Source: Salpingoeca rosetta (Eukaryota > Opisthokonta > Choanoflagellata > Craspedida > Salpingoecidae). From it: a DNA stretch of 25,319 nt. Under the pieces are notes generated by a model. It ran no database searches. It was not told the origin of the DNA and saw only the letters and a list, made by a program, of their open reading frames with translations. This document shows positions 1,053 to 8,206 of the stretch, one piece after another. How positions within the stretch are numbered: the first letter of the stretch is position 1; each line of letters opens with the position of its first letter. The position numbers and the translations under genes are program-made. The stretch is from assembly GCF_000188695.1 (NCBI RefSeq), contig NW_004754926.1, forward strand, positions 676,522-701,840, read 5' to 3'.

Positions 1053-1500
1053 TCATACCGACACAGGCCACAGAAATAGGACAACAAAGCGGTGCTGCTC
1101 CTCGGAAGGCACAGCAAGCGGGCTTTCAGAGTGTAACAGGAACATGCGCAGTCCAACATCGGCGCCTGTGCTCTTGCTGGGAAACAGCTCAAGACACTGA
1201 CTCCCCTTCTTGTCCTTCACGCGCTTCTCAAGCGACTTGAACTGAGGAATGGCCCGCAGAACATTCGCCGGGCAGAACGCGTGCTGCCACTTCCCTTTGT
1301 CTTCCAGCGGCACCCGCACTTCTGCATTTGGTCGCCAGCTCTGGCCCGTGATCTGAACCAGGGACCCAAGCGCTGCTCGCAAGTCCGGCAGGGTCGGGAG
1401 ATGGCCGTCCTCAGACAGCGGCGATTGCACCTGAAAGCCGCGAACGAGGCTGCGCGCTGGGGCCGCCTGACCAAGTTCACCCTCCCACACAACCACGGCT
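1053..1500 (-). other. C-terminal SPOC-like domain
   Basis: Residues about 1922-2071. The segment begins VVVWEGEL, the standard SPOC opening ('vWkG.l'). It continues with LPTLPDLRAALGSLVQITGQ, a central strand CLELFPSKS, GLRMFLLHSESPLAV, and ends HRFVVLFLWPVSV, the last hydrophobic strand. SPOC domains bind phosphoserine peptides or mediate complex assembly, as in SHARP, Chp1 and TASOR. It is the only folded-looking part after the WG array and reaches the stop codon. Confidence 0.6.
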
Positions 1501-7500: not shown

Positions 7501-8206
7501 ATGCAAGCATGTGTGCGCGCCCCATGAGGTTGCATTGCATGCACCCACAACCACGTGGTCCAGCCGCTTTGCAGCAGTGCACATGCATGCACTCACACAC
7601 AACAGCAAAAACAACAACATGTTCAAGTACAGCGACACATCTACACTTCCACAGAGTTCATCTACACGTATGTAGACATGCACACCAACACCGACACCTA
7701 CACTGACATGCATACCAACAGACAAGGTCGTTCGCACATGCACACATACTTCAGGCTCCCAGGTGTTTTCCGAGGCAGGGTAGCCCAGCCATTTCACGAG
7801 GTAGTACGCCTTCTTCTTTGATTTGTCAGTAAACATGCCTTGCACAGCCTCCACCTCATACAACTCCTGTGGTCAAGACGTTGGGTTCAGCACACCACAG
7901 CATCAACATTCATCCATCAGTGCACATGCAGCACACGCTCGTGCATGTGGTGTGATGTGACAATCCTCCCAGCTCTCGTGCTTCCCTTACTTCACCACTC
8001 ATTCACCCACACACACACACACACACACACACACACACACACACACACACACACACACACACACACACACACACACACACACACACACACATATGAATCT
8101 GGACAGCCAGCCCACCATCACGCATGTCATGTGTGTGTGGGGGGGGGAGCGACCGCACCACCCACATCTCCGTACACCGACGAGTGCCCCTCACCTCGTC
8201 CGCCAT
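1053..8206 (-). CDS. Chromodomain / TASOR-like pseudo-PARP / PIN-like / WG-repeat / SPOC protein
   Basis: There are three exons on the minus strand: 8206-8195 (12 nt, M-A-D-E), 7866-7750 and 7139-1053. All junctions are phase 0 (GAG|GTGAGG, CAG|GAG, GAA|GTATGT, TAG|GAG), giving about 2071 residues and a TGA stop. The start is the only ATG giving a spliceable frame into the chromodomain and has a good context (AAGATGG). Domains by residue: chromodomain about 6-59 with cage residues Y7, W30 and Y33; basic conserved stretch to about 120; Ser/Asp-rich linker with an acidic VIVM motif (243-246); four GWG motifs about 386-473; poly-Ala; DUF3715-like pseudo-PARP about 575-790; NYN/PIN-like about 865-1020; Arg-Asp and RGG-rich about 1129-1246; sixteen WG motifs about 1260-1850; SPOC-like about 1922-2071. 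The order suggests a nuclear silencing scaffold that reads H3K9 methylation and recruits partners, combining parts of HUSH (MPP8, TASOR, periphilin) and RITS (Chp1, Tas3). The gene model and chromodomain are solid. Function is inferred. Confidence 0.88.
1700..3490 (-). other. Main WG-repeat array (Argonaute-hook-like)
   Basis: Sixteen WG motifs (SWGS, LWGS, AWGS, GWGT, VWGA, GWGV, AWGG, MWGG, AWGS, MWGV, AWGA, AWGV, AWGA, AWGW, GWGM, AWGK) lie in about 590 residues of Ala/Ser/Pro/Thr/Gln-rich sequence at roughly 20 to 70 residue spacing. A further isolated one, PWGTPP, follows the PIN-like domain. Trp is almost absent from the rest of the low-complexity stretch, so these are selected motifs. 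An embedded GRGRGRA patch interrupts the array near 2435-2455. Confidence 0.85.
1779..1811 (-). repeat. Coding trinucleotide tract encoding poly-serine
   Basis: About ten to eleven AGC units encode consecutive serines after an Asn/Gly-rich patch (NNNSHNNGNG). Pure AGC usage suggests slippage-driven expansion. Confidence 0.85.
3530..3895 (-). other. Arg-Asp dipeptide and RGG-rich region
   Basis: Residues about 1129-1246 have repeated RD dipeptides (an uninterrupted run near 3820-3860), RS pairs, then RGRGGRGG and GGRGGGRDGRR. Such tracts bind RNA and self-associate. Periphilin, the third HUSH subunit, has a comparable Arg-rich disordered part. The DNA is an imperfect GGTCGC/GGTCAC repeat. Confidence 0.8.
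4200..4675 (-). other. NYN/PIN-like domain with degenerate active site
   Basis: Residues about 865-1020. MVYVDMTAV resembles the first strand and acidic residue of NYN/PIN folds. ELVLVVNPGGGSDSLFFVPV followed by ALEKGIRVHMWCW matches the 'vvLvSGDgDF.plv..l...G..V.v' core, with SGDGD changed to NPGGGSD. A final helix ends with DRFEELF. PIN-like domains with lost catalysis occur in TASOR and Chp1. The fold call is moderate; inactivity is inferred from the altered motif. Confidence 0.5.
4893..5550 (-). other. TASOR-like DUF3715 pseudo-PARP domain (by eye)
   Basis: Residues about 575-790. The start, SIVSAARIDNPVFEAEWNLK, fits the PARP opening 'v.rIqNp.l...y..k'. Then come YFMLCDTITAAVDLCANGL, where PARPs have the LFHGT segment, NNGVYAWPCPNFTEHPLPAG, the ILLFETAYYDSSVM strand, and a H...SSAP..H.AFCYSLFFDFDDDG segment followed by RPRQLKPTFLYHVV. 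The last part fits the TASOR/TEX15 pattern of a Ser/Ala-Pro segment, Tyr-rich strand and RPRQ..PY.VV. Catalytic histidine and glutamate are not seen where an active PARP has them, so a pseudoenzyme is expected. I matched this from memory of the family; no profile search was run. Confidence 0.6.
5719..5776 (-). repeat. Coding (GCA)n tract encoding poly-alanine
   Basis: A near-pure GCA/TGC trinucleotide tract of about 19 units encodes about 19 consecutive alanines (around residue 505). The codon purity points to recent expansion and likely length polymorphism. In another frame the same tract would give poly-Gln, so a length change that is not a multiple of three would break the protein. Confidence 0.85.
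5845..6120 (-). other. N-terminal WG cluster
   Basis: Four GWG motifs (GWGISP, GWGAAG, GWGLAS, GWGAGA) lie about 20 to 30 residues apart in a Ser/Thr/Asn-rich disordered stretch. The spacing and small-residue context match Argonaute-hook repeats of Tas3, GW182, NRPE1 and SPT5L. Confidence 0.7.
6531..6575 (-). other. Acidic/serine SUMO-interacting-like motif
   Basis: The protein has four serines, five aspartates and then VIVMPK (VIVM is residues 243-246). A four-residue hydrophobic core beside serine/acidic residues is the classic phospho-regulated SIM layout. A second Asp run, DDDDDIRALN, lies about 40 residues earlier. Function is inferred from pattern only. Confidence 0.45.
7092..7866 (-). 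other. Chromodomain (split by an intron)
   Basis: Exon 2 encodes LYEVEAVQG, then YYLVKWLGYP and SENTWEPE. Exon 3 continues with EGLELCHGFVEDFNEK, the C-terminal helix. Y7, W30 and Y33 match the three aromatic cage residues that hold methyl-lysine in HP1, Polycomb and MPP8. The intron falls exactly between the Glu codons at the WEPE|E junction. Binding to H3K9me or H3K27me is family knowledge. Which mark is read cannot be decided from this alone. Confidence 0.93.
7299..7394 (-). repeat. (GA)n tract, 48 units, in chromodomain-gene intron 2
   Basis: A pure GA tract on + reads as (CT)n on the coding strand. It lies about 160 bp before the exon 3 acceptor. Pure purine-pyrimidine tracts of this length can form triplex (H-DNA). 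Confidence 0.9.
8008..8091 (-). repeat. (AC)n tract in chromodomain-gene intron 1
   Basis: About 41 AC units lie inside intron 1 (8194-7867). On the coding strand this is (GT)n and lies about 100 bp after the donor. Confidence 0.9.

What the first reader, a model, noticed from the sequence alone, without database searches (positions are those of the whole stretch)
1053..8206. A one-protein HUSH/RITS-like silencing scaffold: chromodomain + TASOR-like pseudo-PARP + PIN-like + RD/RGG + WG array + SPOC
Seen: one uninterrupted 6.1-kb exon joined to a chromodomain exon, carrying in order a chromodomain, DUF3715-like region, NYN/PIN-like fold, Arg-Asp/RGG tract, 21 WG motifs and a SPOC-like C-terminus. 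Known: animal HUSH spreads these over MPP8 (chromodomain), TASOR (pseudo-PARP, SPOC, PIN) and periphilin (Arg-rich); fission-yeast RITS spreads them over Chp1 (chromodomain, SPOC, PIN) and Tas3 (GW Argonaute hook). Inference: this gene is either an ancestral-type or secondarily fused platform linking methylated H3 to an RNA-guided or RNA-binding effector. It would be direct evidence that HUSH and RITS are variants of one ancient design. I know of no described protein with this full architecture.
Basis: partly seen in the sequence, partly recalled or inferred. Interest (0 to 1): 0.95.

Follow-up and report, generated by a model that had tools for sequence, protein, structure and literature searches.

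The report
Fused chromodomain and TASOR-like silencing protein
A single-celled relative of animals carries one giant protein that joins a histone-mark reader, a degenerate enzyme fold resembling the core of the human HUSH silencing complex, an RNA-enzyme-like fold and a string of tryptophan-glycine motifs, parts that humans and fission yeast spread over several silencing proteins.

Summary
The window is from the choanoflagellate Salpingoeca rosetta. The gene looks real: three exons encode 2071 residues, and one chromodomain (closest solved relative CDYL) is built from all three, so the chromodomain exons and the 6.1-kb exon belong together. Residues 576-795 resemble the TASOR pseudo-PARP (DUF3715) above most controls and lack the PARP histidine (weaker); the genome's own PARP profiles do not match. 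Residues 863-1030 are an NYN (PIN-superfamily) domain. The Arg-Asp/RGG tract and 21 WG motifs (3.4 expected) are confirmed. SPOC is not established: profile and fold tests fail; one of two pairwise comparisons is suggestive. The Argonaute half of the RITS analogy lacks its partner: no PIWI over cut-off, and RNAi genes are reported as apparently missing (PMC6040629). Best reading: a single-chain, small-RNA-independent, HUSH-like co-transcriptional silencing scaffold, its WG array contacting RNA decay such as CCR4-NOT. Function is inferred. By the published definition (DUF3715 followed by SPOC-DomI) it is not TASOR-like. No paper with both 'TASOR' and 'Salpingoeca' was found.

The parts
8195..8206 (-). 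Exon 1: start codon and MADE
   Evidence: ATG context and GTGAGG donor; MADEELYEVE aligns with MASEELYEVE of CDYL chain 2dnt_A
7750..7866 (-). Exon 2: most of the chromodomain; Y7, W30 and Y33 at the positions of the HP1 aromatic cage (cage positions recalled)
   Evidence: Pfam Chromo 6.7e-12; CDYL 2.3e-13, MPP8 1.8e-7, 'Chromo domain-containing protein 1' (3g7l, Chp1 by recall) 1.2e-5
1053..7139 (-). Exon 3, 6087 bases: C-terminal helix of the chromodomain and all later regions, stop codon included
   Evidence: open reading frame; splice contexts
5859..6107 (-). N-terminal cluster of four GWG motifs (residues 388-470)
4884..5543 (-). TASOR-type pseudo-PARP (DUF3715-like), residues 576-795
   Evidence: vs TASOR 6TL1: local score 58, 2 of 5000 shuffles as high; global z 7.0, 0 of 2000; 0 of 530 real segments. 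PARP10 E 0.0055 over residues 578-641. One-sequence TASOR HMM weaker: 5 of 1000 shuffles and 0 of 487 real segments higher
4179..4682 (-). NYN (PIN-superfamily) domain, residues 863-1030, with an altered active-site motif
   Evidence: 69-member NYN profile: E 0.0026 in 1619 sequences, 0 of 615 real null segments and 0 of 1000 shuffles higher; hhalign probability 85.9, P 5.2e-6 over 137 columns
3483..3896 (-). Arg-Asp/RGG tract (residues 1125-1262), probable RNA-binding region
   Evidence: composition; role inferred
1725..3476 (-). Main WG array, 16 motifs (residues 1265-1848); one further WG at residue 1054
1056..1517 (-). Ordered-looking C-terminal region of unknown fold; SPOC suggested, not shown (residues 1918-2071)
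   Evidence: no Pfam hit; no PDB sequence hit; AF2 pLDDT 48.9; Foldseek best E 0.42, no SPOC named in the 50 rows shown of 157; SPOC HMM rank 678 of 1952; global alignment to SHARP SPOC 8 of 2000 shuffles as high and 0 of 691 real segments, to RBM15 SPOC 347 of 2000 and 51 of 691

Best explanation
A single-chain chromatin-to-RNA silencing scaffold of HUSH type that needs no small RNAs. The chromodomain docks the protein on methylated histone H3 (K9 or K27). The pseudo-PARP and the NYN domain, whose active-site motif is altered, act mainly as RNA or protein docking modules. The RD/RGG tract binds nascent RNA, as Periphilin does for HUSH. The 21 WG motifs are a multivalent hook for RNA-turnover machinery, most likely CCR4-NOT. 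The result would be mark-dependent recognition and destruction of transcripts, probably from transposons, with maintenance of the repressive mark. Shown: gene structure, chromodomain, resemblance of the pseudo-PARP to TASOR, NYN membership, tract and WG enrichment, presence of Rcd1/CNOT9-family exons. Inferred: every binding and silencing step.
For: Chromodomain spanning both splice junctions, cage aromatics kept (cage positions recalled). TASOR-like pseudo-PARP lacking the PARP histidine, while three profiles built from 14 of this genome's PARP loci do not match it. NYN domain. RD/RGG and WG. No PIWI above cut-off; RNAi components apparently missing (PMC6040629 passages). Three Rcd1-family (CNOT9 by recall) matches at C10:655257-656984, E 8.7e-7, 8.2e-6 and 0.076, none over the curated cut-off. 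TASOR binds CNOT1 and the PARP deletion loses that contact (PMC8748822 passages); that W-containing motifs recruit CCR4-NOT was seen only as the title of a cited paper there. The DUF3715 domain is required for LINE1 silencing by TASOR and TEX15's can replace TASOR's (PMC10578480). H3K9 and H3K27 methylation were found in S. rosetta, with H3K27me3 on Gypsy-like elements (PMC11160669 passages).
Against: No functional data. The TASOR relation rests on one reference sequence at 23% identity over 148 columns, where hhalign of single sequences gives probability 1.7; Pfam DUF3715 does not hit (without positive control) and the one-sequence HMM ranks it 6th of 1488. No SPOC is detected, and SPOC-DomI follows DUF3715 in TASOR-like proteins. 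No Pre-SET domain of H3K9 methyltransferases was found (no positive control). NYN catalysis is not excluded. WG could bind something else or nothing.
Confidence: 0.5

Rival explanations
1. RITS-like scaffold: chromodomain, PIN and C-terminal SPOC as in Chp1, with the WG array as an Argonaute hook for small-RNA-guided silencing.
For: Chromodomain, PIN-superfamily domain and WG motifs recall Chp1/Tas3; Chp1-type chromodomain E 1.2e-5; the C-terminus begins VVWEGEL like SHARP IVWQGLL and its global alignment to SHARP beats 691 of 691 real segments.
Against: No PIWI domain over cut-off in the genome; RNAi components reported apparently missing in S. rosetta; a two-sequence SPOC HMM ranks the C-terminus 678th of 1952.
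Confidence: 0.08
2. Chromatin-bound RNA-processing or decay factor that reads histone marks on genes without silencing them; the pseudo-PARP is a re-used ART fold unrelated to TASOR function.
For: The three PDB chains listed by phmmer at E up to 10 for the pseudo-PARP are PARP10, best E 0.0055. The RD-rich part matched only the helicase DHX8, E 0.6, not significant.
Against: The domain aligns with TASOR over its length and much less with the genome's PARP loci (best z 3.2, L024, 9 of 500 shuffles as high).
Confidence: 0.3
3. Artefact: two neighbouring genes fused by a wrong gene model.
For: No RNA data were available; long low-complexity stretches.
Against: The chromodomain is completed only by joining exons 1, 2 and 3: CDYL matches residues 1-62 with a single one-residue gap.
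Confidence: 0.04

Closest known systems
TASOR (HUSH complex), human
   Same: DUF3715 pseudo-PARP: colinear alignment with 6TL1 over residues 612-786, shared GVY, H-x-C and R-x-RPR stretches, catalytic His position hydrophobic; a PIN-superfamily domain in the same protein
   Different: Chromodomain in the same chain; NYN directly after the pseudo-PARP; no detected SPOC-DomI next to it; WG and RD/RGG tracts
MPP8 and CDYL chromodomain proteins
   Same: N-terminal chromodomain, closest in the PDB to CDYL, then others including MPP8
   Different: Neither ankyrin repeats (MPP8, recalled) nor a crotonase domain (CDYL, recalled) appear: Pfam finds no family in exon 3 at E up to 10
Chp1-Tas3 (RITS), fission yeast
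   Different: DUF3715 is the domain that sets TASOR apart from Chp1 (PMC7532188, section 11); no PIWI over cut-off in this genome; SPOC not shown here
NYN domain proteins (LabA/MARF1 type, names recalled)
   Same: Full-length profile match, with the FVP...W/F...L C-terminal stretch
   Different: First Asp of the SGDxD motif reads Gly; the KGVD Asp is either lost or shifted
TEX15
   Same: Shares the DUF3715 domain type (PMC10578480)
   Different: Different architecture; not compared by sequence here

Membership tests
DUF3715 / RDTS pseudo-PARP | Sequence match to the family | tested here: inconclusive
   Pfam PF12509 no hit at E 10; alignment with TASOR 6TL1 as high in 2 of 5000 shuffles and 0 of 530 real segments; one-sequence HMM 5 of 1000 shuffles higher. 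PMC10578480 says the Pfam model does not cover the whole domain
DUF3715 / RDTS pseudo-PARP | Loss of PARP catalytic residues | tested here: met
   TASOR is listed as L-Y-Q; aligned residues here are M and Y; third position not aligned reliably
TASOR-like proteins (PMC10578480: DUF3715 followed by SPOC-DomI) | SPOC-DomI right after DUF3715 | tested here: not met
   The NYN domain starts at residue 863 after a linker of about 67 residues, too short for SPOC-DomI
Chromodomain readers | Chromo profile and three cage aromatics | tested here: met
   PF00385 6.7e-12; Y7, W30, Y33 aligned to CDYL (cage positions recalled)
NYN / PIN superfamily | Profile match over the domain | tested here: met
   Pfam NYN itself gives no hit
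NYN / PIN superfamily | Acidic catalytic set (recalled) | tested here: inconclusive
   First Asp kept; SGDSD reads GGGSD; KGVD reads KGIR by eye, but hhalign places the Asp of RPD there
SPOC | SPOC profile or fold | tested here: inconclusive
   No hit by Pfam, HMM or fold search on a poor model; SHARP global 8 of 2000 shuffles and 0 of 691 real segments as high, RBM15 347 of 2000 and 51 of 691; local SHARP 193 of 3000 and 24 of 691
GW/WG Argonaute hook | An Argonaute partner | tested here: not met
   PIWI best E 0.165, below cut-off (control rang in 1 of 14 genomes); PMC6040629
HUSH complex | Assembly with MPP8 and Periphilin, SETDB1/MORC2 recruitment | not testable with these tools
   needs experiments

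The most novel reading that the evidence does not exclude
One choanoflagellate polypeptide embodies the whole reader-plus-RNA-sensor core that animals split into MPP8, TASOR and Periphilin and fission yeast into Chp1 and Tas3, and it runs without Argonaute, so the small-RNA-free HUSH mode predates animals and RITS and HUSH descend from, or converge on, the same protein design, with the WG array coupling marks to CCR4-NOT decay.
Probability: 0.3. Interest if true: 0.92.

Novelty: new variant of a known kind. Interest (0 to 1): 0.72.

Why it matters
HUSH is called vertebrate-specific in PMC7532188 (passage), with TASOR-like proteins throughout metazoa in PMC10578480 (abstract). A pre-animal protein in which a histone reader and a TASOR-type pseudo-PARP are covalently joined would be 'Rosetta stone' evidence that the MPP8-TASOR partnership is old. 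It makes the HUSH-RITS relation testable in a choanoflagellate that is a leading research organism (PMC11160669; genetic tools recalled), has H3K9 and H3K27 methylation and has no known RNAi.

Tried and rejected
Viral and bacterial contig scans with residues 553-1043 found no relatives. AF2 without alignment was poor for the C-terminus (pLDDT 48.9) and failed for the NYN region (32.8); Foldseek was run on the first only and gave nothing usable. PDB phmmer with the C-terminus: 0 hits; with the NYN region: one chance-level hit, E 0.5; with the NYN locus L043: 0 hits. Pairwise local comparison of the NYN region with four own-genome NYN loci gave 9, 17, 13 and 594 of 1000 shuffles as high, global with L043 0 of 2000 and 0 of 589 real segments, local 9 of 589. 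hhalign with those four loci was uninformative (20 of 200 shuffles as high) and was replaced by a 69-sequence bacterial and archaeal NYN profile (137 relatives found, 80 kept, 69 long enough used). Own-genome PARP profiles did not match the pseudo-PARP (ranks 327, 85 and 125 of 1001); two viral scans to enlarge them found none. Paralogs: none credible (second hit E 0.117; E 2.66). Searching the genome with the TASOR chain found nothing, not even this gene, so that tool misses this distance. The Argonaute hook was rejected for want of an Argonaute. In one search fourteen minus-strand PARP loci were read on the wrong strand; one search repeats them correctly; several loci hold only one exon of a PARP domain. 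In one search the printed '3 of 615' counts the three NYN-family loci that were added by name (two of them over the Pfam cut-off, L046 just under it), so 0 of 615 null segments. Null segments are overlapping six-frame windows filtered for low complexity, hence not independent; the C-terminal boundary was chosen after seeing the SHARP alignment.

Full report
What the DNA holds. The window lies at G000:C8:676522-701840 of a 54.4-Mb, 49-contig assembly. The one Bac_rhodopsin match in that assembly (L049) is identical over 221 of 221 residues to PDB chain 7cj3, named 'Phosphodiesterase' (7d7q scores alike); by recall this is the Salpingoeca rosetta rhodopsin-phosphodiesterase, so the organism is taken to be S. 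rosetta. On the minus strand, exons 8206-8195, 7866-7750 and 7139-1053 join in phase 0 with GT-AG introns of 328 and 610 bases into 2071 codons. The 2028-codon exon is far longer than open runs in base shuffles (maximum 317 in 200), and its folded segments show coding-type composition. The stop codon overlaps a possible donor (GTATGA), so a further 3' exon is not excluded.

Chromodomain and the fusion. Exon 2 alone gives Pfam Chromo at 6.7e-12. The spliced N-terminus matches CDYL (2dnt, 2.3e-13) from residue 1 to 62; MPP8 (1.8e-7) and Chp1 (3g7l, 1.2e-5; name by recall) are among the 48 hits. The match uses the four residues of exon 1 and the C-terminal helix encoded by exon 3, so the chromodomain itself straddles both splice junctions. 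Tyr7, Trp30 and Tyr33 sit at the recalled aromatic-cage positions.

Pseudo-PARP. Pfam finds nothing in residues 576-795, but phmmer against PDB sequences gives PARP10 at 0.0055 over residues 578-641. The TASOR chain 6TL1 aligns colinearly over residues 612-786: local score 58 (2 of 5000 shuffles as high), global z 7.0 (0 of 2000), 0 of 530 real segments. Of all 220-residue windows of the protein, those covering this region score best, and the other three ordered regions do not align with TASOR (802, 231 and 857 of 1000 shuffles as high). The genome's own PARP loci resemble the query less: over 30 loci (16, 14 re-read) the best z is 3.2 (L024, 9 of 500 shuffles as high), though several hold one exon only, and three profiles from 14 loci rank the query 327th, 85th and 125th of 1001 against its own shuffles. 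Against this, a one-sequence TASOR HMM puts the query 6th of 1488, with 5 of 1000 shuffles and 0 of 487 real segments above it, and hhalign of single sequences is weak (probability 1.7, 148 columns, 23% identity). TASOR is listed as L-Y-Q in place of H-Y-E (PMC7955679, passages); here the first position reads M and the Tyr of GVY is kept. I put an ART/PARP fold at about 0.9 and TASOR type at about 0.8.

NYN domain. A profile of 69 bacterial and archaeal NYN sequences (of 80 loci) scores residues 863-1030 at 14.5 bits, E 0.0026 in a set of 1619, below three NYN-family loci of this genome and above all 615 other real segments and 1000 shuffles; hhalign gives 85.9% and P 5.2e-6 over 137 columns. 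Pfam NYN gives no hit. The first Asp is kept; SGDSD reads GGGSD; the KGVD Asp is either Arg (by eye) or the Asp of RPD (hhalign). The active site is altered, so nuclease activity is doubtful but not excluded.

C-terminus. The SPOC claim is not established. Pfam, PDB sequence search, a two-sequence SPOC HMM (rank 678 of 1952) and Foldseek on a poor model give nothing. A global alignment to SHARP is exceeded or equalled by 8 of 2000 shuffles and 0 of 691 real segments, to RBM15 by 347 of 2000 and 51 of 691; local scores are weaker still. The start VVWEGEL and the length agree with SHARP, so SPOC remains possible (about 0.35).

Low-complexity parts. 21 WG among 39 Trp against 3.4 expected: four in a GWG cluster before the pseudo-PARP, one at 1054 and 16 after the RD/RGG tract (48 Arg, 27 Asp, 29 Gly in 138 residues).

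Partners. PIWI: one match, E 0.165, below cut-off; of 14 control genomes one rang, so the search works, but intron-split eukaryotic genes score low, as the Rcd1/CNOT9 exons show. PMC6040629 (passages) names RNAi components as apparently missing from M. brevicollis and S. rosetta. Pre-SET: none, without a positive control, while PMC11160669 (passages) reports H3K9 and H3K27 methylation by mass spectrometry and H3K27me3 on Gypsy-like retrotransposons.

Comparison. PMC7532188 (outline, sections 8, 11, 13 and passages) gives TASOR as DUF3715-SPOC-DomI...DomII-PIN and likens HUSH to RITS. PMC10578480 (parts 1 and 2 of 5, and passages) places TASOR-like proteins throughout metazoa and DUF3715 in early eukaryotes, and shows that TEX15's domain can replace TASOR's. 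PMC8748822 (passages) reports TASOR-CNOT1 contact lost on PARP deletion. Against those, this protein has the union of reader, pseudo-PARP and PIN-superfamily fold in one chain and in a new order. Searches for papers holding 'HUSH complex', 'TASOR' and 'choanoflagellate', or 'TASOR' and 'Salpingoeca', found 0 papers; the 3 papers with DUF3715 and chromodomain (listing only, except PMC7532188) deal with HUSH subunits by title. The library holds open-access papers only.

Verdict. Whether it is ancestral or a lineage-specific fusion needs relatives that could not be searched here.

Noticed in passing
window 226-885 (+): SH2 domain exon (Pfam SH2 1.5e-5) of a gene on the plus strand, pointing towards the 3' end of the fusion gene.
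   Followed up: partly
window 10540-14184 (-): Exons of a P-type cation ATPase: Cation_ATPase_C 7.7e-23 and Cation_ATPase 1.3e-14.
   Followed up: partly
window 1471-4443 (+): A 990-codon open frame antisense to the large exon, probably a by-product of GC-rich, Ala/Gly/Arg-rich coding sequence.
   Followed up: no
L026, L027, L028, L029, L032, L033, L035, L037: A family of similar PARP-type domains (HGC...GFFG(A/S)GIYLTPQ) in open frames of 367-419 codons spread over several contigs; L026 confirmed as PF00644 at 2.3e-10.
   Followed up: partly
residues 63-133, window 6870-7082 (-): An ordered-looking stretch after the chromodomain (CRTYIAWQGVMEPVYHFDYGPRIQPKWVPQRYL) without a credible Pfam match: the best hit of the scanned piece, 0.0052 and below cut-off, lies mostly in the low-complexity sequence behind it.
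   Followed up: no
G000 as a whole: 13 chromodomain matches in the genome, this one included, so other possible readers exist.
   Followed up: no
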